This document shows, one piece after another, positions 7,848-21,781 of a DNA stretch of 64,000 bases. Numbering within the stretch: the stretch's first letter is position 1; each line of letters starts with the position of its first letter. The notes under the pieces were generated by a model. That model was not told the DNA's origin and ran no database searches. It worked only from the letters and a program-made list of their open reading frames with translations. The stretch covers positions 1-64,000 of the forward strand of contig NZ_JAUSUZ010000001.1 in the NCBI RefSeq assembly GCF_030813715.1, in the 5' to 3' direction. The translations under genes and the position numbers were made by a program. Origin of the DNA: Catenuloplanes indicus (GTDB lineage: Bacteria > Actinomycetota > Actinomycetes > Mycobacteriales > Micromonosporaceae).

Positions 7848-7860
7848 GCGGCGCCCAGAG

Positions 7861-8289: not shown

Positions 8290-8336
8290 AAGGAGACCGC
8301 CAGAGCATCCGGCTCAGCGGAGACAAGGAGATCAGC

Positions 8337-8516: not shown

Positions 8517-8761
8517 GCAGCCCGGTGCAGATGTGGCCGGGCCTGGTCGAGCAGCCGCGCCCCGGCTACGGCTACCTGGTCACCGCCCCCGACCGTAAGT
8601 GGTGGGTGTCGGAGGTCGGGCAGCAGTGGGACGCGTGGCCGTGGCCGGAGTGCGAGGCGCCCGGGTTCGACGACCAGGCGTACATGTGGGAGCACCTGCG
8701 CGGCCGGGGCACGTTCACGGCCGTCGAGAAGATCACCGAGCTGATCGGGGACCCGCAGTGA
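8513..8761 (+). CDS. Hypothetical Trp-rich protein, 82 aa
   Basis: GTG start overlapping the previous stop. It is unusually rich in aromatic residues (RKWWVSEVGQQWDAWPWPEC) and ends with a helix (FTAVEKITELIGD). Function unknown. Confidence 0.6.
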   Translation: MSSPVQMWPGLVEQPRPGYGYLVTAPDRKWWVSEVGQQWDAWPWPECEAPGFDDQAYMWEHLRGRGTFTAVEKITELIGDPQ

Positions 8762-8961
8762 CGGACGCGTTCACGGCGGTCGTCGCCCAATTCCAGGAGT
8801 GCCCGGCCGGACGCCTGTGCTCCTGCCAGCACCCGGGCGGCGAGTACAGCTGTGTCCACTGCCGCTGCGACTGCCCGTTCCCGGACCCGTGCACGGGCGT
8901 GGAGTCCCCGGACGCCTGCCAGTGCTGCGGCCGGGACTTCTTCCACCGAGGTGAGCGGTGA
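8758..8961 (+). CDS. Cysteine-rich protein, 67 aa, probable zinc binder
   Basis: GTG 8758 overlaps the upstream stop. Eleven cysteines in 67 residues form closely spaced pairs (RLCSCQHP, CVHCRCDC, ACQCCGRDFF). The number and spacing suggest two or more zinc sites. There is no signal peptide, so it would act in the cytoplasm. Similar Cys-rich microproteins recur through the element. Confidence 0.6.
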   Translation: MTDAFTAVVAQFQECPAGRLCSCQHPGGEYSCVHCRCDCPFPDPCTGVESPDACQCCGRDFFHRGER

Positions 8962-9188
8962 GCGCCTACGCCAGCGACGACCGGGTGGTCGTGTTCGGCG
9001 GCGGTCACCTCGGCGTGTATCTGCCGCAGGACGACCGGAACGAACGTACCCCGTCCGGCGATGTCCGGCCGCGGACGGAGGGCTGGTTCGCGGCTTACGT
9101 GGCCGGCGAGCCGCAGGGTTCGTTCCGGTCGCTGGATGAGGCGGTGGAGTCGTTGATCGGCCCGCCGCGCACCACCGAGGTTCTGTAG
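8958..9188 (+). CDS. Hypothetical protein, 76 aa
   Basis: GTG start in a GTGA overlap. Beta-strand front (DRVVVFGGGHLGVYL), then GWFAAYVAGEPQGSFRSLDE and a short helix (AVESLIG). Function unknown. It closes a sub-operon before the hairpin at 9197. Confidence 0.6.
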   Translation: MSAYASDDRVVVFGGGHLGVYLPQDDRNERTPSGDVRPRTEGWFAAYVAGEPQGSFRSLDEAVESLIGPPRTTEVL

Positions 9189-9196
9189 TTCCGCGC

Positions 9197-9246
9197 GGGG
9201 AGCAGCGTCCACCTGCCAAGACGAGCGCTGCTCCCCACCACCAACC
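9197..9246. terminator. Strong 11-bp-stem hairpin between sub-operons
   Basis: GGGGAGCAGCG (9197-9207) pairs perfectly with CGCTGCTCCCC (9236-9246). It starts nine bases after the stop at 9188 and is followed by GAAGGAGG and ATG 9270. There is no T-run, as usual in actinobacteria. Confidence 0.6.
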
Positions 9247-9269
9247 ACCCCCCGAAGGAGGGGATCAGC

Positions 9270-9434
9270 ATGCGACAGGATACGACCTGCAACCACCAGC
9301 CCTGCCACTCCTACTGCCCGCGGATCGGCCGTCTCGCCGCCGACGAGGGCCGCCCGCCCGTCCAGCGGACCGGTGTCGGCGCGCTCGCCTCGACCGACAC
9401 GGTGACCACGTCCAACTCGACCAAGGCGGCGTGA
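9270..9434 (+). CDS. Small Cys/His protein, 54 aa
   Basis: ATG 9270 follows GAAGGAGGGGATCAGC. The N-terminus has a compact cluster, TTCNHQPCHSYCPR, that could hold one zinc ion; the rest is Thr/Ser-rich and probably disordered. Function unknown. Confidence 0.55.
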   Translation: MRQDTTCNHQPCHSYCPRIGRLAADEGRPPVQRTGVGALASTDTVTTSNSTKAA

Positions 9435-9646
9435 TGAAGACCGACTCCCGATCCGCGCACCGATGCCGGCCGCTGACCCGCAGGGCGCCCGGTGGTGATC
9501 CGCAGCCGCTCGTGATGCGCGAGTCGTCGATCGCCGCGCTCGCCCTGAACCCGCCGCCCCGCCACGACGTGCTCCTCGGCGCGGGCGGGGTCCTGACCGA
9601 GGTGACCGTGGCGGGTACGCCGGTCGCGTCCTGGAGGCTCGTATGA
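9434..9646 (+). CDS. Hypothetical protein, 70 aa
   Basis: ATG 9434 shares its first base with the previous stop (TGATG). The front is basic (SRSAHRCRPLTRRAPGG); the rest is strands (GGVLTEVTVAGTPVASWRL). Function unknown. Confidence 0.5.
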   Translation: MKTDSRSAHRCRPLTRRAPGGDPQPLVMRESSIAALALNPPPRHDVLLGAGGVLTEVTVAGTPVASWRLV

Positions 9647-9864
9647 CCGGCGCGCAGATGACCGGTGCTCAGATCGACAACGCCGTACACAGCCTCGAAG
9701 CCGCCGGCGTCCACACGGCGATCTCGGTCGAGTCGGGGACCGTCAAGGTCGCGGTGCTGTCTACCGTCTACGGCCGGGAGGCGACGATCCGGGTCCTCGC
9801 CGGGTTGCTGCCGGACGGGGTCGCGTTCGAGGTCGTCTCCTGGCCGAAGGGGGTGGCGTCGTGA
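9643..9864 (+). CDS. Hypothetical protein, 73 aa
   Basis: The start holds a duplicated MTGAQ. The alpha-beta pattern (NAVHSLEAAGVHTAISVESG, VKVAVLSTVYGREATIRVLA) resembles the neighbour at 10055 and the later gene at 21981 (each a helix ending AAG, then strands), suggesting a small repeated family. Function unknown. Confidence 0.55.
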   Translation: MTGAQMTGAQIDNAVHSLEAAGVHTAISVESGTVKVAVLSTVYGREATIRVLAGLLPDGVAFEVVSWPKGVAS

Positions 9865-10058
9865 GCCGCACCTGGGTGACCGCCGACGACGGTGTGACGC
9901 GACTGGTCGAGATCGTCGCCGACGACGCGATCGCCGGCTACCGGGCCCGCTGTACGACGCACGGCTGGCTGGACACGAACGGCGAGCACGGACTCAACCC
10001 GGTGATCGGGTACGCCGGGAACCACATCGACTACGACCACCGGGAGGTGGCGGCATGA
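9861..10058 (+). CDS. Hypothetical protein, 65 aa
   Basis: GTG start, coupled on both sides. Strands (RLVEIVADDAIAGYRARCTT) and HGWLDTNGEHG with several histidines. One cysteine only. Function unknown. Confidence 0.55.
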   Translation: MSRTWVTADDGVTRLVEIVADDAIAGYRARCTTHGWLDTNGEHGLNPVIGYAGNHIDYDHREVAA

Positions 10059-10258
10059 GCGCCCCGGTGCTGGCGGAGCCGATCGAGTGCCTGTGCGCGG
10101 ACCTGGCCGCCGCCGGCCTGCCCGTCACGTGTTGCGTGGAGGGCGGCCGGGTGTGGCTGACCCCGAACGGCCCGGTCGACACGGTGATCGAGGTGCGGGC
10201 GCTCGCGGTCGCGCTGCGTCGCGTGCCGGATCCGGTGTGGCGGGAGGCGAGCCGATGA
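10055..10258 (+). CDS. Hypothetical protein, 67 aa
   Basis: The product begins with IECLCADLAAAGLPVTCCVE, then strands and VIEVRALAVALRRVPD. Its fold pattern matches 9643 and 24592. Four cysteines. Function unknown. Confidence 0.55.
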   Translation: MSAPVLAEPIECLCADLAAAGLPVTCCVEGGRVWLTPNGPVDTVIEVRALAVALRRVPDPVWREASR

Positions 10259-10569
10259 GCGACGACCGGCCCGCAATCCGCTTCGTCAACTACATGTCGG
10301 ACCGGGAGACGATGAACGCCCGGCTGATCATCGGCCCGTACGAGACGACTGCCGAGCGGGACGCCGACCTGGACCGCCTGTCCGGGCTGCCGCTCGGTGA
10401 CGACTGCTTCTACGGCGGGCAGGAGTTCGACGCCGCGACGATGGCCGAGGCCAGCGACGGCTGGCATGACGAGACGGTCGAGCCCGCCCAGGTCGCGCAC
10501 GCCACCACCATCCGCGGCTTCCACGCCGCGTTCGACGGCGTGCCCGAGGACGAGGAGGACGACGAGTGA
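10255..10569 (+). CDS. Hypothetical acidic protein, 104 aa
   Basis: The core is an alpha-beta unit (MNARLIIGPYETTAERDADL) and the C-terminus is very acidic (VPEDEEDDE). Such acidic tails occur in DNA-mimic and inhibitor proteins, but nothing else supports that here. Confidence 0.6.
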   Translation: MSDDRPAIRFVNYMSDRETMNARLIIGPYETTAERDADLDRLSGLPLGDDCFYGGQEFDAATMAEASDGWHDETVEPAQVAHATTIRGFHAAFDGVPEDEEDDE

Positions 10570-10973
10570 GCGACCTGTTCTTCGACTGGATGTTCACGCG
10601 CCGGTTCGCCAAGCACGCCTACGACGACCGGTTCCTTCTCCACGACGGCACCCGGTACATCGTCTGTAACCTGTCCGACCGCGACCATCAATGCTGGGTC
10701 GCTGCGTGGACGGCCGACGGGCAGATGCCGCTGACACCACTCAACGTTCTCAGCGAGCAGCACGTGTGGGAGCGTCAGTATCGGCCCGCCGCGGAGATGA
10801 TGGCGCTGTGGAACGGGATCTTCAAGCCGGGCGATGACCTGCCCGGGTGTGTGTTCACCGGCCGGTCCTGGGACGGGGTCGCTGTCCGGGACGTGTTTCG
10901 GGACTCGGGCTGGTCGACGGACGCCGTCCGCGGTGAGTTGGTCGCGCTGCTCGACGCTGTGGAGGCGTCGTGA
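10566..10973 (+). CDS. Hypothetical protein, 135 aa
   Basis: GTG start overlapping the previous stop. The product is aromatic-rich (SDLFFDWMFTRRFAKHAYDD) with strands and a C-terminal helix (VRGELVALLDAVEAS). No family is recognised. Confidence 0.6.
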   Translation: MSDLFFDWMFTRRFAKHAYDDRFLLHDGTRYIVCNLSDRDHQCWVAAWTADGQMPLTPLNVLSEQHVWERQYRPAAEMMALWNGIFKPGDDLPGCVFTGRSWDGVAVRDVFRDSGWSTDAVRGELVALLDAVEAS

Positions 10974-11284
10974 GGCCGTCGCGGGAGCTCGACCACCTCA
11001 TCTGGCCGCACTCCGACATCACGCACATCTGGCCGGACCTAAAGCCCGGCATGACGATCGGCTGGTGGGAGGGGCCCGACGGCCCCGACTACCTGAACGT
11101 CCTCGCCGTCCACCCGCCAAACCCGGACGACGAGGAGTGGGTGTACATCGACGCGGTCGAGGGCCGCTTCCGGCGCCTGCCCGGCGACATCTTCGAGGAG
11201 ATCACACCGGAGATGGCGGACCTGATGGGTGTGATCGTCGTGGCCGAGTCGGCACGGCTGGCCGCGAACGGCGGTGCCTCGTGA
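10970..11284 (+). CDS. Hypothetical protein, 104 aa
   Basis: The product contains HIWPDLKPGMTIGWWEG and EEWVYIDAVEGRFRRLPG, a compact beta arrangement, then a helix (EEITPEMADLMGVIVVAESA). Function unknown. Confidence 0.6.
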   Translation: MRPSRELDHLIWPHSDITHIWPDLKPGMTIGWWEGPDGPDYLNVLAVHPPNPDDEEWVYIDAVEGRFRRLPGDIFEEITPEMADLMGVIVVAESARLAANGGAS

Positions 11285-11529
11285 CCACCATCTACGAGGA
11301 GCCGCTGCTGGCCCTCCAGGACACCACGACCCGCGAGACGATGCAGATCGCCTGGGACGGCGACGGGCCCGCGCTCGGCCTGCACTTCGCGCTCAAGCCC
11401 GGCATCCGCTGGGTGACCGTCACCAGCGCGGTCGTCGACGACGAGAGCGGGCAGATCACCGTCACGGTCGACGGGGTCGAGTCGACCTGGACCCGCTACT
11501 TCCCGGCGACGTACCGGAGGGCGTTATGA
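11281..11529 (+). CDS. Hypothetical beta-rich protein, 82 aa
   Basis: GTG start in a GTGA overlap. The sequence alternates strands (RWVTVTSAVVDDESGQITVT) with few helices. Function unknown. Confidence 0.6.
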   Translation: MTTIYEEPLLALQDTTTRETMQIAWDGDGPALGLHFALKPGIRWVTVTSAVVDDESGQITVTVDGVESTWTRYFPATYRRAL

Positions 11530-11666
11530 CCGCCGCGCACGAGGCGGAGCCGGCCGCCCAGACTGCGGAGGAGCTGCTGGCCGAGTTCGGGCGGGACGGC
11601 CTGGACGCGACCACAGAGCCGGTCCTGGATCAGATCGTGGCGGGGGAGTGGCCCGCCGGCGAGTAG
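11526..11666 (+). CDS. Hypothetical acidic protein, 46 aa
   Basis: ATGA overlap start. A Glu-rich helix (TAEELLAEFGRDGLDATTEP) dominates. It is the last gene of the 7.7-kb array; a terminator follows 14 bases later. Confidence 0.55.
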   Translation: MTAAHEAEPAAQTAEELLAEFGRDGLDATTEPVLDQIVAGEWPAGE

Positions 11667-11680
11667 AGCACGCACGTGAG

Positions 11681-11713
11681 AACGCCCCGCACGGCTTCGG
11701 CCGGCGGGGCGTT
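11681..11713. terminator. Bidirectional terminator between convergent arrays
   Basis: AACGCCCCGC (11681-11690) pairs with GCGGGGCGTT (11704-11713). It sits between the plus array ending at 11666 and the minus gene ending at 11729. The same stem sequence recurs at 12221-12255. Confidence 0.75.
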
Positions 11714-11728
11714 GCGCTGCCTGGGGTT

Positions 11729-12031
11729 CTACTCGCCGGCGAGGGCCGTGTTCGCGGCGGTCGCGAGGGCGAGTGCGGCGGTGCGGACCTGGGCGAGCTG
11801 GGCCGCGTTCAGGCCTGCCTGGCTGCCTGCGGCGAGCGCGGCGGTGAGGGCCTGCATCTGGCTGGCGAGGGCGGCTGCGGTCGGCTGGCTGGCCGGGGAC
11901 GCCGGTGCGGCCGGTGCGGGGGTGGGGCTGTGGGGGGTGGGGAAGCCGAGCACCTGCGACAGGGTCGGGCCGGCGGCGGCGGTGGAGCGGAGCAGGGCGT
12001 ACCTGGCGGCTGCGGACGCGGATGCGGGCAT
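11729..12031 (-). CDS. Ala-rich hypothetical protein, 100 aa
   Basis: ATG 12031 follows AGGAGGCACCCC. The product has a basic front (AAARYALLRSTAAAG), a Pro/Ala linker and an Ala/Gln-rich helical region (ALASQMQALTAALAAGSQAG). It resembles no known family; the low complexity makes homology calls unsafe. It is the last gene of the minus array. Confidence 0.5.
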   Translation of the reverse strand: MPASASAAARYALLRSTAAAGPTLSQVLGFPTPHSPTPAPAAPASPASQPTAAALASQMQALTAALAAGSQAGLNAAQLAQVRTAALALATAANTALAGE

Positions 12032-12220
12032 GGGGTGCCTCCTGGGGCTGGTGCGGGGGTTTGGGGGTTGCCCTCGCGGCGTGGCCTGCGGTGGGGCTGA
12101 CACCAGCTTGCGGGCTGAGAAATTCGGGGTCAAGGTGGGCGAATGTGTTTCCCTGACTGGGTGACACGCGCTGCGCGTCCACTGTGGAGTCCGTGCCGGT
12201 TTGGGGGCGTGCGGACGCGG

Positions 12221-12255
12221 GAACGCCCCGCCGGCGGGGGCCGTGCGGGGCGTTC
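12221..12255 (-). terminator. Terminator after the 86-residue gene
   Basis: GAACGCCCCGC (12221-12231) pairs with GCGGGGCGTTC (12245-12255), 12 bases downstream of the stop at 12268. The 190 bases between it and the next start (12031) hold no gene. Confidence 0.65.
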
Positions 12256-12267
12256 TGCTGTCCGGGA

Positions 12268-12528
12268 TCAGGTGATCGGCTGGCCGGCGGCGAGCCGGGA
12301 CAGATAGCCGATGACCTCGTCGGCGGTCAGCCCGTCCATGACGATGACGCCGCGGGCGGTGTCGGTGGCGGGTTCGTCGTCGGTCGGGTCGACCTCCAGC
12401 TCGTACAGCCAGATGCTGTGCGGGTCGGTGGTGACGTTCGCGCCGCGGCCGGACGGGAACTGGTAGTGGGCGTGGCCGGGCGCCGAATCGGTGATGAAGA
12501 AGTCCAGGTCGGCGAGGGTGGCCGTCAT
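12268..12528 (-). CDS. Hypothetical protein, 86 aa, YQFP family
   Basis: The product includes HAHYQFPSGRGANVTTDPHS and a C-terminal helix (LTADEVIGYLSRLAAG). It is a paralogue of the next gene upstream (12525-12746), with which it overlaps by four bases. Function unknown. Confidence 0.6.
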   Translation of the reverse strand: MTATLADLDFFITDSAPGHAHYQFPSGRGANVTTDPHSIWLYELEVDPTDDEPATDTARGVIVMDGLTADEVIGYLSRLAAGQPIT

Positions 12529-12746
12529 GCCGCCGCCAGCTGGAGCAGCTTCGCGGTCGCGTCGTCCTCGGACAGGCCGCGCATGCTGGGTCCGTCGGAG
12601 ACGGCGATGCTCCAGGTGGTGCCGTTGAAGACGATGGACGCCTCGGTGCCGTCCGGGAACTGGTAGCGGGCGGAGTCATCGTTACGGCTGACGAGGTGCT
12701 GGTCGAGGCCGTCGCGCCACGGCAGGGTGTTGGTCGGTGCGGTCAT
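12525..12746 (-). CDS. Hypothetical protein, 73 aa, YQFP family
   Basis: ATG 12746 follows AAGGAGCCCCGC. The body (ARYQFPDGTEASIVFNGTTW then LSEDDATAKLLQLAAA) aligns with the 86-residue neighbour over the strand-helix core. The pair arose by duplication. Function unknown. Confidence 0.6.
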   Translation of the reverse strand: MTAPTNTLPWRDGLDQHLVSRNDDSARYQFPDGTEASIVFNGTTWSIAVSDGPSMRGLSEDDATAKLLQLAAA

Positions 12747-12824
12747 GCGGGGCTCCTTGCGGGGGTGAGGGGTCCGCCGCCGTCCGGGGAAGAGAACGGC
12801 GGCGGCTGGCCGGTTGGCCACCGT

Positions 12825-12854
12825 GCCCGCCCGAGCAGGTGCGATCGGGCGGGC
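12825..12854 (-). terminator. Hairpin between minus genes
   Basis: GCCCGCCCGA (12825-12834) pairs with TCGGGCGGGC (12845-12854), 14 bases after the stop at 12869. Confidence 0.6.
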
Positions 12855-12868
12855 CGGAAGCACAGCGG

Positions 12869-13219
12869 TCAGTACCGGCGTTCGGCGTCGGGCCGGTTGA
12901 GGGTGTTGACCCCGTTGAGCGCGTCGTTCCAGGCGTCCTGCTCGCCGGCGGGAAGCGTGATCCCGGAGCCGAGCATCGCCGCGGTCTGGGCGAGGACGGC
13001 GAGGGTGTGCGCGGACTCGCGCAGGTGCGCGGCATACACGCCCGGGCCCTCGTTGCGGTGCTCGCGGTTGTAGACGTGCTGGCCGTTGAAGCGGTTGTAG
13101 ACGCCGCTCCCGGCAGGGTTGTTCATCTGGGCGACCACCCGGTCGGCCTCGTAGAGGCGGCGGATCGATTCGGCGGCGAGTTCGGGGCCGGAGTAGAGGC
13201 GGACGGTCGTGTCTGTCAC
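12869..13219 (-). CDS. Hypothetical protein, 116 aa
   Basis: GTG 13219 is preceded by AGGAGAGCAC, which argues against the longer frame opening at 13282. The product starts TDTTVRLYSGPELAAESIRR and has a middle rich in Asn, Tyr and Gly (GVYNRFNGQHVYNREH). Function unknown. Confidence 0.55.
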   Translation of the reverse strand: MTDTTVRLYSGPELAAESIRRLYEADRVVAQMNNPAGSGVYNRFNGQHVYNREHRNEGPGVYAAHLRESAHTLAVLAQTAAMLGSGITLPAGEQDAWNDALNGVNTLNRPDAERRY

Positions 13220-13315
13220 GTGCTCTCCTGCTGGTCGAGGTCCGGGCTGTCCGGCCTGCCACCGCCACAGCACCCGCCACATACGGGCGCGGATGCTGGA
13301 CGGGGCCAGGCCGGG

Positions 13316-13525
13316 CTACCGGAACGTGACCGTGATCCCACGGGCCGCCCCGTAGTCGACGATCAACTTGGTGCGCTCCTCCCCGAGAACGAAGAAGCCG
13401 AGGTCGAGCGTCAGGCTGGTCGCGGTGTGTGCGGCCACGGTGACGAACGCGCGGACGTCGAGCGCAACCATCTCGGCGTGCTCGAATACGTCGGTGACGG
13501 TCGGGGTTCGGTCGGTGCTGTCCAT
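13316..13525 (-). CDS. Hypothetical protein, 69 aa
   Basis: The product has a helix (DVFEHAEMVALDVRAFVTVA) and strands (SLTLDLGFFVLGEE). It is separated from its neighbours by short gaps with no strong ribosome site visible. Function unknown. Confidence 0.5.
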   Translation of the reverse strand: MDSTDRTPTVTDVFEHAEMVALDVRAFVTVAAHTATSLTLDLGFFVLGEERTKLIVDYGAARGITVTFR

Positions 13526-13540
13526 GCTGGTGTCCCCCGG

Positions 13541-13849
13541 TCAGCCGATGTTGTAGGTGCCGGAGTGCTCGACGTGCTCGATCTCGACGGGCCGCACGCC
13601 GTCCGCGGTGGCGACCGTGAACGAGCCGCCGTTGATGCCGGTGACGACGCCCTCGACGCGCTTACCGCCGTACAGGACCGCGATGAACCCGGTCAGGGTC
13701 GGGGCGTTGAAGCTGAACTGGGCGTGGGCGGTGATCGTGGCGATGGCCTGCTCGCGGTGGCGGCGCTCGCGTGGGGTCTGCGGCTCGGCGTGCTGGATGG
13801 CGTCGTTGCGGGTGCTGATCTCGTCGAGCATGGCGCGGATGTCGCTCAT
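13541..13849 (-). CDS. Hypothetical protein, 102 aa
   Basis: An N-terminal helix (DIRAMLDEISTRNDAIQHAE) and a basic stretch (RERRHREQAIATITAH) precede a small beta barrel (AVLYGGKRVEGVVTGINGG, FTVATADGVRPVEIEHVE), similar in outline to Hfq/Sm-like or KOW-type folds. The resemblance is structural guesswork from strand pattern only. Confidence 0.55.
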   Translation of the reverse strand: MSDIRAMLDEISTRNDAIQHAEPQTPRERRHREQAIATITAHAQFSFNAPTLTGFIAVLYGGKRVEGVVTGINGGSFTVATADGVRPVEIEHVEHSGTYNIG

Positions 13850-13878
13850 CGGGTGGTCTCGCTTTCGGTGTCGGGTGG

Positions 13879-13924
13879 GCTGGCCGGGCGCGTCCAGCGG
13901 GGGTCTGTGACACGCCCGGCCAGC
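13879..13924 (-). terminator. 12-bp-stem hairpin
   Basis: GCTGGCCGGGCG (13879-13890) pairs perfectly with CGCCCGGCCAGC (13913-13924), 19 bases after the stop at 13943. Almost the same stem occurs at 14415-14455. Confidence 0.6.
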
Positions 13925-13942
13925 AGGGGGAGGGAGGAAAGA

Positions 13943-14194
13943 TCAGTTGATGCAGCAGAGGTACGAGCCGCACGGGCCGTCCGGCTTGCAGTCGCCGTCC
14001 GGGTCGTGGTGGTGGCCGCAGCCGCAGCACGCCCAAGCGCCGAGGTCGTGGATGTCGCCGCAGCAGCAGCGCATCTGCGCGTAGACGGTCCAGTGCTGGC
14101 CGCCGCACAGCCGGTGGCCGGTCATCGTGCCGACCTCGCCGTCGACGACCTCAGGCTGTACGACCTGGCTGGGGCGGGGGACGAGGCTGCCCAT
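13943..14194 (-). CDS. Cys/His-rich zinc-binding-like protein, 83 aa
   Basis: ATG 14194 shares a base with the upstream stop (TGATG); an internal ATG before TGHRLCGG is a possible alternative. The C-terminal half is crowded with metal ligands: MRCCCGDIHD, WACCGCGHHHDPDGDC and PCGSYLCC. Eleven cysteines and five histidines suggest at least two zinc sites. Function unknown. Confidence 0.6.
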   Translation of the reverse strand: MGSLVPRPSQVVQPEVVDGEVGTMTGHRLCGGQHWTVYAQMRCCCGDIHDLGAWACCGCGHHHDPDGDCKPDGPCGSYLCCIN

Positions 14195-14385
14195 CAGGCG
14201 GCGATCCGGGCGAGGCCCGCGGTCCGGGCGCGCTGCACGCCGATCGACTCGGCGATCGCGGCACGGCGGGCGGTCTGCCGGCCAGGGCGGCGCCGGGGGC
14301 GGGCGGGGCGGGTGTCGTCGAGGTCCAGGTCGCGGGCGGGGCGGGTGTCGTCGAGGTCCAGGTCGCGGGCGGTGATGGCGCGCAT
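14194..14385 (-). CDS. Basic protein with duplicated 11-residue unit, 63 aa
   Basis: ATG 14385 follows AAGGAGCACCCC, so the longer frame from 14457 is rejected. The sequence has two exact copies of ARDLDLDDTRP (a 33-bp tandem repeat at about 14305-14370), then an Arg-rich stretch (ARPRRRPGRQTARRAAIAES). An acidic repeat next to a basic tail suggests a nucleic-acid or protein docking peptide. Function unknown. Confidence 0.55.
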   Translation of the reverse strand: MRAITARDLDLDDTRPARDLDLDDTRPARPRRRPGRQTARRAAIAESIGVQRARTAGLARIAA

Positions 14386-14414
14386 GGGGTGCTCCTTCAG
14401 AGCTGGATGGGGGC

Positions 14415-14455
14415 GGCTGGCCGGGCGGTCCTGTGCCGGACGCGCCCGGCCAGCC
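14415..14455 (-). terminator. 13-bp-stem hairpin
   Basis: GGCTGGCCGGGCG (14415-14427) pairs with CGCCCGGCCAGCC (14443-14455), 20 bases beyond the stop at 14476 and before the SD of the next minus gene. Confidence 0.6.
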
Positions 14456-14475
14456 ATTACGGGGGAGAAAAAAGA

Positions 14476-15138
14476 TCAGGCGGCGGTGAAACCGAGCAGC
14501 GCGGTCGCCTTGCCGGTCGGCTGCCCGCCGGCCAGGTAGCCGTACGTCTCCAGCCAGCACCGCCCGGCGGCGTTCAGGCGGCCGGCGGACCAGTTCCCGC
14601 GGCAGGTGTCGCCGGGGGCGGTGTCGAGGTCCATGAGCAGGCGGGTCCCGGCGGCGTCAAGGGCGTCACGGCGGGCGGTCCGGTGCTTGTCCCGGCCGCG
14701 GCCAGCGCGCCAGACGATGCCGTCGATCGCGGCGATGAGCATGGCGCGGATTGCCGACGGGCCGGGCGGGGTGGTGGAGGCGCCGCCGCGGCGGATCGGG
14801 ACCTGGCGGCCGCGGTCGACGGCGAAGTCCTTCAGGCGGGCGGTCGGCTCGGCCGGCGCGGGTGCCGGGGCGGTCCACTTGGCGCTGCCGTCGGCGGTGG
14901 CCATCTTCTCGACGATCTGCGCCGCGCTCATCTGCGCCTGGGCGAGGTAGGCGACTCGGGCCCAGTAGTCGCGGGCGCTGTCCTTGTTCTCGAACGGGTT
15001 GGTGAGCTCGTCGTGGCGGGTCATGCCGGAGCGGGCGGTGACGGTGTAGCCGTCGACGGCGGTGGAGAGGGACAGCGTCAGGGTGCCGTAGGTGCGCTCG
15101 GCGACGACGGTCCCGGGCGAAGCGGTAGTGTTCTGCAT
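14476..15138 (-). CDS. Hypothetical protein, 220 aa
   Basis: ATG 15138 is preceded by CAGGAGCGATC; a longer frame to 15372 would run through the control region and is rejected. The N-terminal third is beta-rich (RTYGTLTLSLSTAVDGYTVT), residues about 50-85 are helical (ARDYWARVAYLAQAQ), and the C-terminal part is basic (RRGGASTTPPGPSAIRAMLI, RAGRGRDKHRTARRDALDAA). It heads the minus array. No family is recognised. Confidence 0.6.
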   Translation of the reverse strand: MQNTTASPGTVVAERTYGTLTLSLSTAVDGYTVTARSGMTRHDELTNPFENKDSARDYWARVAYLAQAQMSAAQIVEKMATADGSAKWTAPAPAPAEPTARLKDFAVDRGRQVPIRRGGASTTPPGPSAIRAMLIAAIDGIVWRAGRGRDKHRTARRDALDAAGTRLLMDLDTAPGDTCRGNWSAGRLNAAGRCWLETYGYLAGGQPTGKATALLGFTAA

Positions 15139-15204
15139 TGCTGATCGCTCCTGGTAGCTCAGGGTCGGTCGGTTCGCGGTTGGCATTCGCAGTGCTTTCC
15201 GCGT

Positions 15205-15382
15205 GGCCCGGTCGGGAGTTCGCAGCTCCTGGCCGGGCCGTCTTGCGTTGTGCCGGGGTTCGCAGCCCCGGCGGCCTTGCTGGGGACTACTTTGCCCCAC
15301 GCCGACCGTAAGTGTCAAGTGACTTGGCACAGTGGCCTTGCTTAGTTGCTTGGCAAAGCTGCTTTGTGTCATTCTGTGGAGG
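15205..15382. promoter_or_regulatory. Divergent control region with twin hairpins
   Basis: Two hairpins with the same 7-base loop TTCGCAG lie side by side: GGCCCGG..GGAG-loop-CTCC..CCGGGCC (15205-15239) and GCCGGGG-loop-CCCCGGC (15252-15272). They fall in the 5' leader of the 220-residue minus gene. On the other side, CTTGGCACAG (15323) and CTTGGCAAAG (15349) form direct repeats 26 bp apart in front of the plus gene at 15383. The AT-richer 15290-15375 stretch probably carries both promoters. Confidence 0.5.
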
Positions 15383-15793
15383 ATGACCGACTACTCACGC
15401 GCGCTCCACAACGCCGCAGACGAATACCGGGCCGCAGAAGCCCAGCTCAACCGCGCCCGCGACAACCTCGCCGCCACCATCCGCGCCGCCTACTTCGACA
15501 CCACGAAGAAAGCCGACGTCCTCCGCGGCATCAACTACGAGTGGTCCCGCACCCATCTCGACGACACCATCATCAAAGCCTGGTGGAACGAACTCGACGA
15601 CGCGCTCCGCCAGCGCCTCCTCGCCGCCGTCGACCAGCCGCACCTACCCACGGAGCTGATCCCCGAACTCGCGGAGGCCGGCGTCGCCGTCCAGTTCTGG
15701 AGATTCGCCGGCGAAATGGAACCCGTCTGGCCGCGCGGACTCAAGCACTTCCTCGCCGAACGCAAGCCCCGGACCCCCAAGGAGCCCGCATGA
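15383..15793 (+). CDS. Hypothetical helical protein, 136 aa
   Basis: ATG 15383 follows GGAGG directly; the frame from 15332 lacks a ribosome site. The N-terminus is a coiled helix (AADEYRAAEAQLNRARDNLA). The end is basic (KHFLAERKPRTPKEP). It opens a three-gene unit under the repeats at 15323-15358. Function unknown. Confidence 0.6.
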   Translation: MTDYSRALHNAADEYRAAEAQLNRARDNLAATIRAAYFDTTKKADVLRGINYEWSRTHLDDTIIKAWWNELDDALRQRLLAAVDQPHLPTELIPELAEAGVAVQFWRFAGEMEPVWPRGLKHFLAERKPRTPKEPA

Positions 15794-16092
15794 TCCTCGA
15801 AGGCCAGAGCGGCAACTACCTCGACAGCGACGCGTTCGACGCCGCCTACCGCGCCCTCATGCCGTTCAACCCGATCGCCCAGGCCCGCGCCACCATCGCC
15901 GAGACCGTCGTCGCCACACTCATCGAACAGCGCGCCACCAACGGGATCGACCACCTGCGCGACCTGGCGCAGTCACCGACCCTCCGCCTGCCCCTCGTCG
16001 AGCAGATCAAGGCGCAGCTCTCCGGGTCGCTGAACGCGCCGCGCACTGGGGTCGACGAGGCGATCGCGGCTGGCGCCGCCGCCCTGTCCTGA
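15790..16092 (+). CDS. Hypothetical helical protein, 100 aa
   Basis: ATGA overlap with the preceding gene. Predominantly helical (PIAQARATIAETVVATLIEQ, LVEQIKAQLSG). Function unknown. Confidence 0.6.
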   Translation: MILEGQSGNYLDSDAFDAAYRALMPFNPIAQARATIAETVVATLIEQRATNGIDHLRDLAQSPTLRLPLVEQIKAQLSGSLNAPRTGVDEAIAAGAAALS

Positions 16093-16120
16093 CCGCGGTC
16101 AAGAGGCAGAAGGAGCCCGC

Positions 16121-16384
16121 ATGACGATTCCGACTTCTGCGGAAGGCGACGTCCCCTGGGATGCCGTCGATGGTTGGGGTGGGCACTACCGGTCGAGAAT
16201 CGACCCGGCGTGGGAAGTGCATGAGGCTGCCGGTGGCGCGGGCTGGGAGCTGCGTAACACTGCGACCGGCTCCGTGCGGCCGATCGATACGCGCGGCGGA
16301 CTGTATGCGGCGCTGGATATCGCCGAGGCTGCGATTCGCAGCGTGGTGCACGGTGATCCTGGCAGCCAACGCTGGACAACCTGA
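16121..16384 (+). CDS. Hypothetical protein, 87 aa
   Basis: ATG 16121 follows AGAAGGAGCCCGC. The product begins TIPTSAEGDVPWDAVDGWGG and has a small alpha-beta core (IDTRGGLYAALDIAEAAIRS). It has fewer G/C third positions than the genes around it. A terminator follows. Confidence 0.6.
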   Translation: MTIPTSAEGDVPWDAVDGWGGHYRSRIDPAWEVHEAAGGAGWELRNTATGSVRPIDTRGGLYAALDIAEAAIRSVVHGDPGSQRWTT

Positions 16385-16396
16385 CCTGTGTCGCCC

Positions 16397-16438
16397 GATG
16401 CCCGGCGTGCCGCCTTCCCGGTGGCGCGGCCGGGCATC
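16397..16438 (+). terminator. Terminator hairpin
   Basis: GATGCCCGGC (16397-16406) pairs with GCCGGGCATC (16429-16438); the intervening bases can form an inner weak stem. It isolates the following regulator-containing unit. Confidence 0.7.
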
Positions 16439-16471
16439 GTCGCGTCTGGCCCCGTTGGAGTGACGAAGCTT

Positions 16472-16498
16472 TTGCTTCCTAAATTAGGATGCTAATGT
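16472..16498 (+). promoter_or_regulatory. Promoter with embedded palindrome for the Aca2-like operon
   Basis: TTGCTT (16472-16477) and TAATGT (16493-16498) are spaced 15 bp apart and resemble -35 and -10 boxes. The perfect palindrome TCCTAA-A-TTAGGA (16477-16489) lies between them, where a bound repressor would block RNA polymerase. The regulator two genes downstream is the obvious candidate. Confidence 0.55.
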
Positions 16499-16549
16499 TG
16501 GTGCATCGCCAGGGGACAGCCCCAGGCAACCACAGACAGGAGACCCACC

Positions 16550-16858
16550 ATGGTCACCACCACCAGCTACGGCACCTGGGCCAACCACGGCGACGGCGAA
16601 CTCACCCTCGAAGCGGGCGTCGCCACCTCCCTCGGCGAATACGCCAACGACTACGACCTCGACGCGCTCACCACCGCCTACCGCGACGCGATCAACGACG
16701 CCCTCCCGGACAGCATCAGCCTCGCCGGCAGCGACTTCTACGGCCCCGCCTACGACACGGACCGGGACTTCACCGGCGAGCCCGCCGACGCCATCCGCGA
16801 GGCGATCGCCTCCGTCGACTTCTGGTCCCTTGCCGCGAAGTACGACAAGACCGCCTGA
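16550..16858 (+). CDS. Small acidic protein in anti-CRISPR position, 102 aa
   Basis: ATG 16550 follows CAGGAGACCC. The product is strongly acidic, with many more Asp/Glu than Lys/Arg (LGEYANDYDLDALTTAYRDA, GPAYDTDRDFTGEPADAIRE), soluble and without any known domain. It lies directly behind the palindromic promoter and directly in front of an Aca2/YdiL-like HTH gene, the arrangement of acr-aca operons. Small acidic proteins in this position often block CRISPR-Cas or other nucleases. That role is inferred from neighbourhood alone. Confidence 0.55.
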   Translation: MVTTTSYGTWANHGDGELTLEAGVATSLGEYANDYDLDALTTAYRDAINDALPDSISLAGSDFYGPAYDTDRDFTGEPADAIREAIASVDFWSLAAKYDKTA

Positions 16859-16925
16859 CCCGTCCCGCCCAGCTGGCCCGGACCCCCACGATGGGGCCGG
16901 GCCGCTCGTCATAGAGGAGCCCACC

Positions 16926-17558
16926 GTGCCGCACATGACCGGCGCCGCCCTGCACATCCACCGCCGCGGGCTCGGCCTGACCGGCGACCAGCTCGCCGCG
17001 ATCGTCGCGGTCACCGGCCGCACCATCCGAGCCTGGGAAGCAGGCCGCGACCCGATCCCCGCCGGCGCCGCAACCGAGATCGAGCGGCTGCGCGAGCGAA
17101 CCCGGGAGGCGATCACCGCCCTGACCGTCGACCTCGCCGACCACGACGGCGACCCGACCATCGCCGTCTACCGCGGCGACGACGAGTTCTGGGCCGCCCA
17201 CCCCGACGCCAAACCACTGCCGGCCGCCTGGCACCAAATGGTCGCCGCTCGCGTCGCCGAACACGTCCCGACCGCCCGGATCGTCTGGGCCGGCGCCACC
17301 GGCGATCAGCCGGTCCGGCGCTGGCCGCTGACCCGGCTCGCCGAGGCCGCCGCAGCCGCCAGGCAGAACCGGGACGCTGGCGCCGTGAAGAAGATGCTGC
17401 CGCACCTGCGGCTCCTCGCCCTCGACGAGCGCGTCCAGGCCGAGACCCGGATCAACGTGCTCCTCTCGGCCGCGCGCGCGATCGACCCGCGCATCGGTCG
17501 CGCCGCCAGCCCAGCCGACGCGCTGGACGTGCTCCTCGTCGCGGCCGACGCCCGATGA
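16926..17558 (+). CDS. Aca2/YdiL-like HTH transcriptional regulator
   Basis: GTG 16926 is well placed behind GAGGAG; ATG 16935 is in frame. Residues about 5-50 form a Cro-like HTH (GLGLTGDQLAAIVAVTGRTI then WEAGRDPIPAG). Residues about 75-110 (IAVYRGDDEFWAAHPDAKPL followed by AAWHQMVAARVAEH) match the C-terminal part of the YdiL/Aca2 family, in which an aromatic-D-E-aromatic segment precedes a helix of the dimer interface. A further 90 residues of helical unknown sequence make it longer (210) than Aca2. It probably represses its own operon through the palindrome at 16477-16489. Confidence 0.6.
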   Translation: MPHMTGAALHIHRRGLGLTGDQLAAIVAVTGRTIRAWEAGRDPIPAGAATEIERLRERTREAITALTVDLADHDGDPTIAVYRGDDEFWAAHPDAKPLPAAWHQMVAARVAEHVPTARIVWAGATGDQPVRRWPLTRLAEAAAAARQNRDAGAVKKMLPHLRLLALDERVQAETRINVLLSAARAIDPRIGRAASPADALDVLLVAADAR

Positions 17559-18070
17559 ACGACCGGCAGCTCGTGGCGCCGCCGGTCGTCCGGGTCACGC
17601 CCGGCACGGCGGCGCACCGCGAACTACTCGCCGACCTGGGCCGTGAGCCGCTGGCGGGGGAATGGTGGGAGGACGCCGAGTCCGCGGTGGACGCAGACAG
17701 TGCACGTACCTCGTACATGGTCGTCTACGCGGACGGGCCGGACAACCGACCGGTGCCCGCAGCGTGGGCCGGCTGGCGGCTGGAGGCCGACGGCACGCGG
17801 CTGAAGTGCGTCGACAACTACGTCCGGCGTGGCTTCCGGCAGCGCAGCCCCGAGCTGTATCGGCTCGTCTACGCGGCCCGGCACCGCCAGGTCGTCCTCA
17901 AGCTGCGCCTGCCCGCCGAGACGTACCTGTTCCCGGAGCCGATCGGCCGGCACCTCGCCTCCGGCTGGCAGATCGACCCGGCGCCGGGCGCGGCTGGGGA
18001 GTCCACGCCCTACGGCGGCGGGCCGGTCCACCGGTGGCAGCGGCTCGTCTGGACGCCACGGGCGCGCTGA
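17555..18070 (+). CDS. GNAT-like protein of unknown substrate, 171 aa
   Basis: The start overlaps the regulator stop by four bases. The order of elements recalls GNAT acyltransferases: TSYMVVYADGPDNRPVPAAW and AGWRLEADGTRLKCVDNYV as central strands, RRGFRQRSPELYRLVYAARH like the acetyl-CoA-binding turn and helix, then a strand and a C-terminal lobe (IGRHLASGWQIDPAPG). The diagnostic Q/R-x-x-G-x-G/A loop is imperfect (RGFRQRS), so the call is tentative. Operon position suggests it works with the putative inhibitor or regulator. Confidence 0.45.
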   Translation: MNDRQLVAPPVVRVTPGTAAHRELLADLGREPLAGEWWEDAESAVDADSARTSYMVVYADGPDNRPVPAAWAGWRLEADGTRLKCVDNYVRRGFRQRSPELYRLVYAARHRQVVLKLRLPAETYLFPEPIGRHLASGWQIDPAPGAAGESTPYGGGPVHRWQRLVWTPRAR

Positions 18071-18120
18071 CTGCAGTTCGGCGCGCCGCAGGGAGGGCAG
18101 CATGCCGGGGAACGGCGCGT

Positions 18121-18882
18121 CTACCACCGGTGCTGGCGCCACTGCCAACGATTCCGCAGGTCATGCCACCGATTCGACAATCCTCCGCGCTGGTTCATCG
18201 ACCGTACGTAGGCGGCATGATGCGGATGCCTTTGCAGTAGATCAACGAACTCGCGCAACTCCACTGCGGCGTCAAAGGAGCGGCCGTCCAAGACCGCCGC
18301 CCTCGTCCGGTCCACGAAGGCGTTCAGGACCGGATCGTCGCTGACCTGCAATGCACGCATCAGTGCAGGGATATGATCGTCAATCAGGGCCCGCAGGTGC
18401 GCGAGGAACCTTTCTTCGCCGTCGGCGTCAATGAACGGTAGCTCCGCTGGAAGCGTGTGCTCGTCCATGAAGTCGAGCCCGTCCCACCGCATGTGAAGAA
18501 CTTCCTTCAGTCCATGGCAGTGCACCGCATGCAGGGGCGGGTGAGGCAAGGCGGAGCTATGGAGCATACGGTTTGCCGACCGCTCCGGAGCCGCCAGGAG
18601 GGCGGTGGCGGCATGGATTTCGCGTCGCCACTTGCGTGCTGCCAAGACGACGGCATCCTTGCGCTCTTGGGCTCGCTCGCTGGCGGCCGCCCGGTTGAAC
18701 AGCGTGGCCGCGATCAGCGCCGTGGTAGAGAAGCCGGTCGCCCCGGACAGCAGGTTGACGAAGTACGGGTGCCCCTGCAGGAAGTCGAGCGCGAGCCACT
18801 CCAGCAGCACGCCGGCTGCGAACGTGGTGACGGCGACTACGGCGAGCCCGCGCAAGACCGAACCGGGGAGACGCTGCTGCAT
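18121..18882 (-). CDS. Membrane protein with long cytoplasmic helical domain, 253 aa
   Basis: Two membrane segments lie at residues about 10-30 (LAVVAVTTFAAGVLLEWLAL) and 40-60 (LLSGATGFSTTALIAATLF). A basic charged helix (ASERAQERKDAVVLAARKWR) and about 170 soluble residues follow. It stands alone in reverse orientation between two plus operons and its codons are less G/C-biased, both typical of a moron expressed in the lysogen. Function unknown; an exclusion or sensing role is conceivable. Confidence 0.6.
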   Translation of the reverse strand: MQQRLPGSVLRGLAVVAVTTFAAGVLLEWLALDFLQGHPYFVNLLSGATGFSTTALIAATLFNRAAASERAQERKDAVVLAARKWRREIHAATALLAAPERSANRMLHSSALPHPPLHAVHCHGLKEVLHMRWDGLDFMDEHTLPAELPFIDADGEERFLAHLRALIDDHIPALMRALQVSDDPVLNAFVDRTRAAVLDGRSFDAAVELREFVDLLQRHPHHAAYVRSMNQRGGLSNRWHDLRNRWQWRQHRW

Positions 18883-20018: not shown

Positions 20019-20306
20019 GTGACCACAGCATCGCACACCCGGGAAGCGTTCGGAACCATCCCGAACCAAGTCACACCCGAAGACGCCGGCTCGCCCGAGG
20101 TCATCGTCTTGACCCGCGCCGAGTACGAACAGCACGCCACCCTCCACTGGCGGCTCGGACACCAAGCGGGCATCGTCGCCGGCATCCGCTGGGCCGACCG
20201 GCAGTACAACAACGCCATCGCCGAGGTCGCCGCCGGCATCCCCGCACCCGCACACGAGATCGTCGCCGCATACGTCCGCCGCCTCGACCGGCAGGCCGCC
20301 GCGTGA
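20019..20306 (+). CDS. Hypothetical protein coupled to the helicase, 95 aa
   Basis: GTG 20019 follows CGAAAGG. The product is helical (RAEYEQHATLHWRLGHQAGI, AGIRWADRQYNNAIAEVAAG) and its stop overlaps the helicase start by four bases. It may be a helicase accessory factor; no family is recognised. Confidence 0.6.
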   Translation: MTTASHTREAFGTIPNQVTPEDAGSPEVIVLTRAEYEQHATLHWRLGHQAGIVAGIRWADRQYNNAIAEVAAGIPAPAHEIVAAYVRRLDRQAAA

Positions 20307-21781
20307 CCGACGCCGCCCGGCCGCGCGGCGCCGACATGTTCCCCGACGACCCGCAACTCGCCGCGGAATGGGACCGCGCCGACGCCCCCGAACAGCCCAA
20401 GCGGCGCGGCCCGGCCGCCGCCAAGCTCACGTTCGGGCCGATCAAGCTCGCCGACCTCGTCTACCCGCACATGGTCGGCGTCTTCCGATGGAACGCGCAG
20501 CTCGGCTGGATGCACTACACCGGCGCGAAATGGGCGACCGGCGCCGACCCGGCGGCCCTGCTCTGCGTCGTCGACACCGTCAAGCAGTACGCGCACCAGC
20601 TCATCGACGCTCGGCCGCTCGGCCCGACCGCCGACGACCTGAAAGAGCTCGCCGCGATGTCGTCCGGCGCTGTGCACTCGCACGCCCTGAAGATCCTGCG
20701 CGGGATGGACGACATCTTCACCCCGGTGGAGGAGTTCGACCGGCCGCCCGATCCGGGCCAGCCGTGGCGGCTGCACTGCGCGAACGGCGTCACGCTCGTT
20801 CTGCGCGCCGATGGCACCATGAGCCGCCGGCAGACGTCGCCCGACGACCGGAACACCCTCGTTGCCTGCGACTACCTGCCGGATGCCGAAGCGCCCGCGG
20901 TCGGTGCGGCGTTCGCCGCCTACCAGCCCGACGCCGAGGTGCGCCGCTACCTGATGCAGATGTGGATGCGCGGACTGTCCGGGCTCGGCGCGGAGAAGTT
21001 CATGGTCAACCTCGGGGCGACCGGCGGGAACGGCAAAGGCACCATGCAGGCGATCCTGACCGGCGTTGCCGGCAGCTACTCGGCCGAACTCCCCGTCGAG
21101 GTCATCCTCAAGGGCAACCGTGCTGCCCGCGAGGTCTACCGGTCCGAGCTCGCGCTGCTGCGCGGCGCCCGCCTGGTGTGGTGCGACGAGCCCGAGGAAG
21201 GCGCCCGCTACGACACCGGCGTGCTGAAGAAGCTCACCGGCGGCAACGAGGTCTCCGGCCGCGGCATGGGCAAGGAGGCGGTGACGTTCGCCGGGCACTG
21301 GCTGTTCTCGATGGCGTCGAACAGCCGCCCGTCGTGGTCGGCGGACGGCGGCATGGACCGCCGCTACATCGAGGTCCCGTGGGACTACCAGATCCCCGAG
21401 AGTCAGCGCCGCGAGGACTTCAAGGAAGCCCTGCGCGCCGAGGCGCCCGGCATGTTGAACGAGCTGCTGAAGCACTGGCTCGGGACCGCGCAGCCGCCGG
21501 TGCCGGCCGTCGTGGCGAAGCAGACCGCGGAGGGCCGCAACGAGTCGTCGCCGGCGGCCGGGTTCGTTCGGGACGCGATCGAGGAGCGACCGGAGGAGTC
21601 CGTCTCCGGCGTGAACATGTACGCCGCGTATTCGGAGTGGGCGCGCCAGAACGGCATCCGGCCGGTGTCGTCGACCAAGCTCGGGGCCGAACTGACCCGC
21701 CTGGGCTTGGAGAAGGAGCACACGAGGAGCGGGAAGAGGTATCTGGGGGTGTCCGTCGTGCCCGAATACGTCCGCATTTAG
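20303..21781 (+). CDS. Phage/plasmid SF3 (D5-type) replicative helicase
   Basis: This 492-residue protein contains the D5_N-type region (residues about 75-215: YLPDAEAPAVGAAFAAYQPD) and an SF3 helicase core. The Walker A motif is GATGGNGKGT at about 238-247, Walker B is ARLVWCDEPEEG, and the sensor motif is WLFSMASNSRP near 340. The C-terminal domain (SSPAAGFVRDAIEERPEESV) matches the DNA-binding part of P4-family helicases. There is no N-terminal primase-polymerase domain, so a separate primase would be needed. It would unwind the origin during element replication, and an origin-like inverted repeat follows its stop directly. Confidence 0.9.
   Translation: MTDAARPRGADMFPDDPQLAAEWDRADAPEQPKRRGPAAAKLTFGPIKLADLVYPHMVGVFRWNAQLGWMHYTGAKWATGADPAALLCVVDTVKQYAHQLIDARPLGPTADDLKELAAMSSGAVHSHALKILRGMDDIFTPVEEFDRPPDPGQPWRLHCANGVTLVLRADGTMSRRQTSPDDRNTLVACDYLPDAEAPAVGAAFAAYQPDAEVRRYLMQMWMRGLSGLGAEKFMVNLGATGGNGKGTMQAILTGVAGSYSAELPVEVILKGNRAAREVYRSELALLRGARLVWCDEPEEGARYDTGVLKKLTGGNEVSGRGMGKEAVTFAGHWLFSMASNSRPSWSADGGMDRRYIEVPWDYQIPESQRREDFKEALRAEAPGMLNELLKHWLGTAQPPVPAVVAKQTAEGRNESSPAAGFVRDAIEERPEESVSGVNMYAAYSEWARQNGIRPVSSTKLGAELTRLGLEKEHTRSGKRYLGVSVVPEYVRI

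What the first reader, a model, noticed from the sequence alone, without database searches (positions are those of the whole stretch)
16472..18070. Candidate anti-CRISPR (acr-aca-like) operon
The sequence shows a terminator-isolated unit: promoter with an embedded perfect palindrome (TCCTAA-A-TTAGGA), a 102-residue very acidic orphan protein, then a regulator whose HTH and following Y-x-x-x-D-E-F-W-x-x-x-P-D segment resemble the Aca2/YdiL family, then a GNAT-like orphan. Known acr operons have exactly this order: small acr gene(s), aca last or near last, autoregulated through a palindrome in the promoter. That the acidic protein is an inhibitor of CRISPR-Cas or of another defence nuclease is inference.
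Basis: partly seen in the sequence, partly recalled or inferred. Interest (0 to 1): 0.75.

Follow-up and report, generated by a model that had tools for sequence, protein, structure and literature searches.

The report
Aca2-type operon with conserved RNA leader
A prophage in a soil actinomycete carries a small operon built like those that other phages use to control anti-CRISPR genes; relatives in other actinobacterial phages and plasmids share its DNA switch and a structured RNA leader, but what its acidic protein does is still unknown.

Summary
The regulator (16926-17558) matches Pfam Aca2_YdiL above its cut-off, and its best solved relatives are Aca2 proteins. Of 57 distinct regulator loci tabulated, 47 carry an operator palindrome (most often GCTTCCTAAATTAGGAAGC or ACACCCTAAATTAGGGTGT) just before a -10 box. 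A 5' leader with hairpins follows, then usually one or two small genes, then the regulator. On 39 aligned leaders there are compensatory base changes; no Rfam match was found. Operator half-sites covary with the recognition helix, the window itself being an exception. The acidic protein belongs to an uncharacterised family; in a scan anchored on it, 8 of 28 viral loci have an Aca2-like gene directly after it and 17 have none in the fetched flanks, so anti-CRISPR function is not shown. A Gordonia plasmid operon of this design carries a lone Cas5 beside the regulator. Best reading: an Aca2-controlled, probably DNA- and RNA-autoregulated cassette with probably anti-defence cargo. The 'GNAT-like' label is unsupported.

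The parts
16385..16450 (+). GC-rich hairpin upstream of the promoter (terminator-like stem, no T run)
   Evidence: RNA fold -44.7 kcal/mol; terminator scan found none
16470..16498 (+). promoter: -35-like TTTTGC 16470-16475, 17-nt spacer, -10-like TAATGT 16493-16498
   Evidence: by eye from the sequence, by comparison with the same arrangement in relatives; not called by the consensus scan
16477..16489 (.). operator palindrome TCCTAAATTAGGA between -35 and -10 (right flank GGATGC deviates from the family's GGAAGC)
16508..16527 (+). leader hairpin 1 (GCC-A-GGGG-ACAG-CCCC-A-GGC)
   Evidence: fold; family pairs with compensatory changes; model R1 matches 16490-16552 with 37.6 bits, the window being one of its training rows
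16539..16558 (+). predicted second stem over part of the ribosome-binding site and the start codon; not the family's usual SD-in-loop hairpin
   Evidence: fold; deviation visible in the alignment
16550..16858 (+). 102-aa acidic protein, first gene, family A
16859..16925 (+). 67-nt gap between first gene and regulator with a GC-rich fold; here the longest uninterrupted stem is 6 pairs, no more than shuffles give
16926..17558 (+). Aca2-like regulator: HTH plus Aca2-type second domain (residues about 1-125) and an extra C-terminal part of about 85 aa
17555..18070 (+). 171-aa orphan overlapping the end of the regulator gene; no family; 81% identical neighbour in one same-genus genome

Best explanation
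This is an Aca2-controlled cassette of a prophage in an actinomycete, probably a Catenuloplanes. On infection the promoter is free, so the first gene (acidic protein) is made early and in excess. The regulator, last of the conserved core, then accumulates, binds the palindrome between -35 and -10 and shuts transcription off. It probably also binds the 5' leader near the ribosome-binding site and blocks translation, as I recall being reported for Aca2 of phage ZF40. In relatives a GC-rich stem between cargo and regulator probably lowers regulator output relative to cargo. The cargo is most likely a protein that disables a host defence (CRISPR-Cas, restriction or other). Shown here by sequence: regulator family, operator, leader structure in the family, gene order, prophage setting. 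Inferred: binding, repression, RNA control, attenuation and the anti-defence role.
For: Aca2_YdiL hit above cut-off; the four best PDB sequences are Aca2, E 3.5e-4 to 6.4e-3, YdiL only E 0.5; ZF40 Aca2 itself found by tblastn from a sister regulator, E 2e-7. Operator plus leader in 47 of 57 distinct tabulated regulator loci. Leader pairs: 94.2% of cells paired, 7 of 12 pairs with two-sided change against 1.4 +/- 1.1 in shuffles, 0 of 500 reach it. Of 14 sources outside the model's training rows, 6 have a match at E <= 0.0014. Helix and half-site covary: K after W-x-x-G in 30 of 33 distinct TTCC-type helices and 0 of 7 ACCC/CCC-type, Fisher 6e-6. Operator unique in the host. Unlike-looking small families occupy the first place behind one control region; 34 of 41 first genes have net charge of -9 or lower. 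A Gordonia plasmid operon with operator and leader carries a Cas5 (63.8 bits) overlapping the regulator, with no other annotated cas gene in the 32 kb shown; a Cas5 mimic, AcrIB3, is a known inhibitor (PMC13131331, passages). Prophage: terminase, portal, head and tail genes nearby.
Against: No experiment. The cargo has no match in the family libraries or PDB fold search. In the scan anchored on the cargo, 17 of 28 loci have no Aca2-like gene in the fetched flanks (up to 4 kb, less at contig ends), and no leader was found outside loci with an Aca2-like gene; of 16 of these 17 inspected, 6 have an HTH_17-like gene before the family member and several have a 292-aa protein or helicase after it. 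Two further Aca2-like loci, L044 and L021, left out of the 57, showed no such palindrome in 220 nt upstream. Host has no Cas1. Only 35 of 1223 Aca2-like proteins have a known acr upstream (PMC9410906, passages). The window deviates: imperfect right operator arm, ACCC-type helix residues (A before W, R after G) with a TTCC-type operator, no standard second hairpin, no uninterrupted stem between the genes. The covariation tests are not corrected for shared ancestry. ZF40's leader is not matched by the model.
Confidence: 0.6

Rival explanations
1. The same control system drives ordinary early mobile-element genes (DNA handling, replication or conjugation helpers) rather than anti-defence genes; Aca2-like proteins would be general autoregulators of short early operons.
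For: Family A also occurs without Aca2-like genes, beside HTH_17-like and helicase genes; leader-like sites precede several genes in two mycobacteriophages; Aca2-like genes are mostly without known acr (PMC9410906, passages) and include chromosomal YdiL and SO3848 (PMC8434428, passages).
Against: Swapping of many unlike small acidic cargoes behind one control region and the Cas5-bearing operon are more typical of anti-defence cassettes. Family A is rare in genomes (1 of 394 class genomes, the window's own).
Confidence: 0.3
2. It is a toxin-antitoxin-like pair, the regulator being an antitoxin that neutralises a product of the operon.
Against: The only match above cut-off is Aca2_YdiL; the partner gene varies between unlike families while the regulator stays; no toxin family detected in the cargo proteins scanned.
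Confidence: 0.06
3. The palindrome and operon order are coincidental; an unrelated XRE repressor follows an orphan.
For: HTH_31 and HTH_3 similarity below cut-off.
Against: Conserved operator and leader in dozens of loci; Aca2 as best solved relatives.
Confidence: 0.02

Closest known systems
acrIF8-aca2 operon of Pectobacterium phage ZF40
   Same: Small first gene then Aca2 regulator; palindrome directly before the -10 box and a stem-forming leader, both by eye in L129; 32.5% identity between ZF40 Aca2 and a sister of this regulator; an Aca2-RNA complex is in print (PMC11239489, passages).
   Different: Different operator sequence; leader not matched by model R1; 10-nt gap between the genes instead of 67; unrelated cargo by the tests made; the regulator here has about 85 extra C-terminal residues.
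Aca2/YdiL family, Pfam PF08965 (formerly DUF1870), YdiL and SO3848
   Same: Same Pfam family.
   Different: YdiL and SO3848 are not in prophages or islands and have no known function (PMC8434428, passages); YdiL scores only E 0.5.
Start-Associated Sequences (SAS/ESAS) of Cluster K mycobacteriophages
   Same: Repeated element at translation starts, with inverted repeats just upstream of about half of them, in actinobacterial phages (PMC3203893, passages).
   Different: Different sequences; in the passages read no Aca2-like gene or promoter operator is linked to them, and the binding factor is undetermined.
AcrIB3, a Cas5 mimic
   Same: Precedent for a lone Cas5 homologue as CRISPR inhibitor (PMC13131331, passages), as might hold for the Gordonia operon (L126).
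   Different: No Cas homologue was found among the three window genes.
ORFs of Thermobifida phage P318 and Propionibacterium phages
   Same: P318 orf41 begins with the acidic domain (36% identity); Foldseek finds a 387-aa viral protein, probably this one, at E 3.9e-6, then five viral proteins of 100-243 aa, three named as Propionibacterium phage, at TM 0.62-0.74.
   Different: P318 orf41 is 387 aa with no R1 leader match; the other five matches are above E 0.001 and 13-22% identical.

Membership tests
Aca2/YdiL (PF08965) | Family profile above curated cut-off | tested here: met
   36.2 bits against 23.8, residues 4-111 on profile 1-111 of 118
Aca2/YdiL (PF08965) | Closer to Aca2 than to YdiL | tested here: met
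   Aca2 chains E 3.5e-4 to 6.4e-3, YdiL E 0.5
acr-aca operon | Small gene(s) followed by aca, on a mobile element | tested here: met
   order and spacing; prophage genes; co-transcription itself not tested
acr-aca operon | Inverted repeat inside the core promoter, conserved with the regulator | tested here: met
acr-aca operon | Regulator represses that promoter | not testable with these tools
   needs reporter or gel shift
acr-aca operon | First gene inhibits CRISPR-Cas | not testable with these tools
   no match in the libraries or PDB searches made; host lacks Cas1
Aca2-type RNA control | Structured leader at the ribosome-binding site | tested here: inconclusive
   met for the family; the window keeps hairpin 1 but not the usual second hairpin
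Aca2-type RNA control | Regulator binds the leader RNA | not testable with these tools
   inference from ZF40 Aca2
AcrIF8 family (for the sister cargo family C) | Profile or fold similarity to AcrIF8 | tested here: not met
   hhalign probability 0.1% against the single AcrIF8 sequence; no PDB fold match at E <= 0.001
GNAT acetyltransferase (third gene) | GNAT family profile | tested here: not met
   no GNAT match at E <= 1 in Pfam or at E <= 0.1 in PHROGs and NCBIfam; structure not predicted

The most novel reading that the evidence does not exclude
Actinobacterial phages and plasmids use a branch of Aca2 with its own operator code (TTCC half-sites read with H/N and K around the recognition helix, ACCC half-sites with S, D or A and R) and its own RNA leader, controlling a large pool of unlike tiny acidic anti-defence proteins, including family A (this window) and a captured Cas5. 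The leader and operator would then be a hook for finding new inhibitors in a phylum with few characterised ones.
Probability: 0.4. Interest if true: 0.78.

Novelty: new variant of a known kind. Interest (0 to 1): 0.62.

Why it matters
The 12 Aca families known in 2022 came from Proteobacteria and Firmicutes apart from one archaeal-virus family; the same paper predicts four Actinobacteria families beside AcrIC5 (PMC9765179, passages), and an earlier survey lists 15 putative actinobacterial loci (PMC6739104, passages). The loci here are a set in which the switch is conserved and the cargo is not, the pattern that has led to new inhibitors elsewhere. The leader allows a natural test of whether dual DNA and RNA control by one HTH protein is general to the Aca2 family rather than special to one phage.

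Tried and rejected
Rejected: a real second copy of the operon (C2 overlaps both ends of C1). Rejected: AcrIF8 kinship of cargo family C, suspected by eye. Not supported: a PDB fold match for the acidic protein. Inconclusive: kinship of families A and B (hhalign probability 19.5%, 26 columns); PA6 gp43 as the Propionibacterium relative (probability 8%, 19 columns). Third gene: no relatives in viral contigs, 5 of 150 family genomes including the window's own. Exact operator pattern in viral contigs: 17 stretches; the 7 with the leader are, by contig name or length, loci already known from the protein searches, the other 10 are AT-rich and lack it.

Selection and dropped rows: the 57 loci are 66 tabulated less 9 duplicates. 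They hold 9 of 44 plasmid records and 5 phage records. Of, G151, G085 and G002 C4 enter as L061, L075 and L072, and G002 C67 as itself; left out are L044 and L021 (no such palindrome in 220 nt) and 21 weaker places (E 1.2e-6 to 9.6e-4), not examined for operators. Operators of 8 loci were picked by hand, and 1 of these (L125) left the leader table for want of an ATG. Of 41 distinct leaders, 39 were aligned; L049 and L101 were left out for a second hairpin copy. In the half-site test, G486 (no helix extracted), L126 and L128 (other half-sites) were left out. In the gap test 6 of 43 loci gave no measure. In one search, 19 of 28 loci were inspected (L183 was not).

Full report
WHAT IS THERE. The region reads as the finding says. 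A promoter with TTTTGC (16470-16475) and TAATGT (16493-16498), 17 nt apart, encloses the perfect palindrome TCCTAAATTAGGA (16477-16489). With two mismatches allowed, shuffles give 0.03 matches per window against 4 found, two of them the two strands of this site, and the motif occurs once in the host genome even with one mismatch. The second genomic copy is an overlap between two contigs: C2 matches the last 16 kb of C1 and the first 18,768 bases of the window. The setting is a prophage: terminase, portal and head genes lie in the stretch of C2 that overlaps the end of C1, the tape-measure gene on C2, and a P4-type primase (20303-21781) and an anti-repressor (30713-31624) downstream in the window. 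The genus is probably Catenuloplanes: the same-genus genome G002 holds a 453,072-base contig (L043) of the same length as the Catenuloplanes japonicus contig of the matching locus L072.

REGULATOR. 16926-17558 scores 36.2 bits against PF08965 Aca2_YdiL, cut-off 23.8. Among solved structures the four best sequences are Aca2 (E 3.5e-4 to 6.4e-3); YdiL follows at E 0.5. The ten proteins aligned share A100, W102, H103 and R109 in the second domain. The window protein has about 85 further C-terminal residues that 8 of the 9 others lack.

A CONSERVED CONTROL REGION. From I tabulated 66 regulator loci, 57 after removing duplicates; what was left out is listed under Tried and rejected. In 43 an operator was found by script or by hand, and the distinct leaders printed all show hairpin 1 by eye; four more (L074, L125, L127, and L057 of genome G486) were added, giving 47 of 57. 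Of the remaining ten, two are cut by contig ends (L052, which has a partial leader match at its edge, and L076), two are mycobacteriophages with a related but different leader (L050, L051), one is ZF40 itself (L129), and five have no leader match (L130, G002 C67, G360, G593, G512), although G593 has an operator-like palindrome 447 nt upstream. The usual anatomy is TTGCG, then CTTCCTAAATTAGGAAG or ACACCCTAAATTAGGGTGT, then TAnnnT, then hairpin GGUC-A-GGGG-AACAG-CCCC-A-GACC, then hairpin CCGG-AAGGAA-CCGG with the ribosome-binding site in its loop, then ATG. On 39 leaders the named structure pairs in 94.2% of cells; 7 of 12 pairs show changes on both sides (shuffle mean 1.4, 0 of 500), and sliding the partner strand by one column drops pairing to 60% or less. 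No Rfam match was found in three loci at the gathering thresholds or in 16380-16930 at E <= 1. A covariance model gave scores above 30 bits in 4 of 200 family genomes, all of which also hold a strong Aca2-like regulator. Loci from these four were in its training set, so the informative part is the lack of comparable scores in the other 196; 12 of those have 22-25-bit matches that I did not examine. Of 14 sources outside the training rows, 6 match at E <= 0.0014. An uninterrupted stem of at least 7 pairs lies between the last cargo and the regulator in 36 of 37 loci measured; three of the 36 (L083, L093, L096) and the window are within what simple shuffles give.

OPERATOR AND HELIX. Operators fall mostly into TTCC and ACCC (or CCC) half-site types. 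Among distinct recognition helices, K follows W-x-x-G in 30 of 33 TTCC types and 0 of 7 ACCC types (Fisher 6e-6); H or N precedes W in 31 of 33 and 0 of 7 (2e-6). Shared ancestry was not corrected for. Against a simple code, the window combines a TTCC operator with ACCC-like residues (A before W, R after G).

CARGO. First genes are small and mostly acidic: net charge -9 or lower in 34 of 41, one of these (L124) being a cargo-regulator fusion. They look unlike one another: A (window; consensus TTSYGTW...DYRDAINDALP...GDEFIGP), B/E, C, and a basic HTH_17-like protein D whose Pfam match stays below cut-off. By eye, A and C are fused in Nocardiopsis and in phage P318, and cargo and regulator share one frame in two plasmids. 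AlphaFold2 gives family A a fair model (pLDDT 86, pTM 0.77) with no PDB match at E <= 0.001. In the viral library one hit passes that limit, a 387-aa protein that is probably P318 orf41; five proteins of 100-243 aa follow at E 0.0013 to 0.013 and TM 0.62-0.74, three of them named as Propionibacterium phage. A scan anchored on family A returned 28 viral loci (near-duplicates not removed): 8 with the Aca2-like gene directly after it, 3 with one elsewhere in the locus, one of these weak, and 17 without in the fetched flanks. The leader model found 7 of the 8, the eighth starting at a contig end, plus one of the 3, and none of the 17. Of 16 of the 17 inspected, 6 have gene D before A, and several have a 292-aa protein or a helicase after it. 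This is the main evidence against a strict acr label.

LINK TO CRISPR. One Gordonia plasmid operon with operator, hairpin 1, an 83-aa acidic gene and a 301-aa gene has, overlapping the end of the Aca2-like gene, a Cas5 (PF09704, 63.8 bits) with no other annotated cas gene in the 32 kb shown. A Cas5 mimic that poisons Cascade is known (AcrIB3; PMC13131331, passages). The window host has no Cas1, whereas 26 of 61 family genomes match that profile, some of them weakly or in part; other cas genes were not searched.

LITERATURE. I read passages only. PMC9410906: 35 of 1223 Aca2-like proteins follow a known acr. PMC8434428: Aca2-like proteins in diverse contexts. PMC11239489: an Aca2-RNA complex. 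PMC3203893: SAS/ESAS of Cluster K phages. PMC9765179 and PMC6739104: predicted actinobacterial acr-aca loci exist. That ZF40 Aca2 represses translation through leader stem-loops is recalled; the paper is not held. Three searches for actinobacterial Aca2 in print (6 listed, 4 listed, 10 of 15 listed) showed no title on it; this is a view of listings in one open-access library.

VERDICT. The regulatory claim is close to certain at family level. That the cargo is anti-defence is my best guess (about 0.55), and specifically anti-CRISPR about 0.3.

Noticed in passing
L126 / L189 (Gordonia plasmid pGOR1, record 45412-47643): Aca2-like operon with a Cas5 gene overlapping the regulator; a second Gordonia plasmid (hit H34) has a regulator with the same match scores, not fetched.
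   Followed up: partly
L050 and L051 (mycobacteriophages Typha and Bipper): Leader-like hairpins after a TATAAC-type -10 precede several genes each (some matches weak), suggesting a multi-operon regulon.
   Followed up: partly
L057 421-485 and 1929-1993; L075 around 3653 and 5323: Two operator-plus-leader sites in one locus, before different genes.
   Followed up: partly
L124 2389-3381 and L125 2383-3399: Cargo and Aca2-like regulator appear as one long open frame.
   Followed up: no
window 1-18768 and contig C2: C2 bridges the two ends of contig C1; its match to the end of C1 has many small gaps (99.4% identity, 65 gap openings), as expected of an assembly overlap in a circular chromosome cut inside a prophage.
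   Followed up: yes
L011 4707-7811: 1034-aa frame with head-maturation-protease matches at both ends and an 'RNA ligase' family match in between, possibly an intein.
   Followed up: no
L177 5469-7448: 659-aa frame with an intein-like start (C-x-D-x-x-T-E-I-L, motif recalled) in what looks like an amidase.
   Followed up: no
window 50655-50728 and L010 5727-5799: Inverted pair of about 74 bp at about 91% identity.
   Followed up: no
L018: In the same-genus relative the regulator is split over two frames, the upstream small gene looks different, and the third gene is kept at 81% identity.
   Followed up: partly
G593 (L058): Operator-like palindrome TAGTCCTATAACAGGACTA 447 nt upstream of a distant Aca2-like match, without the leader.
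   Followed up: no
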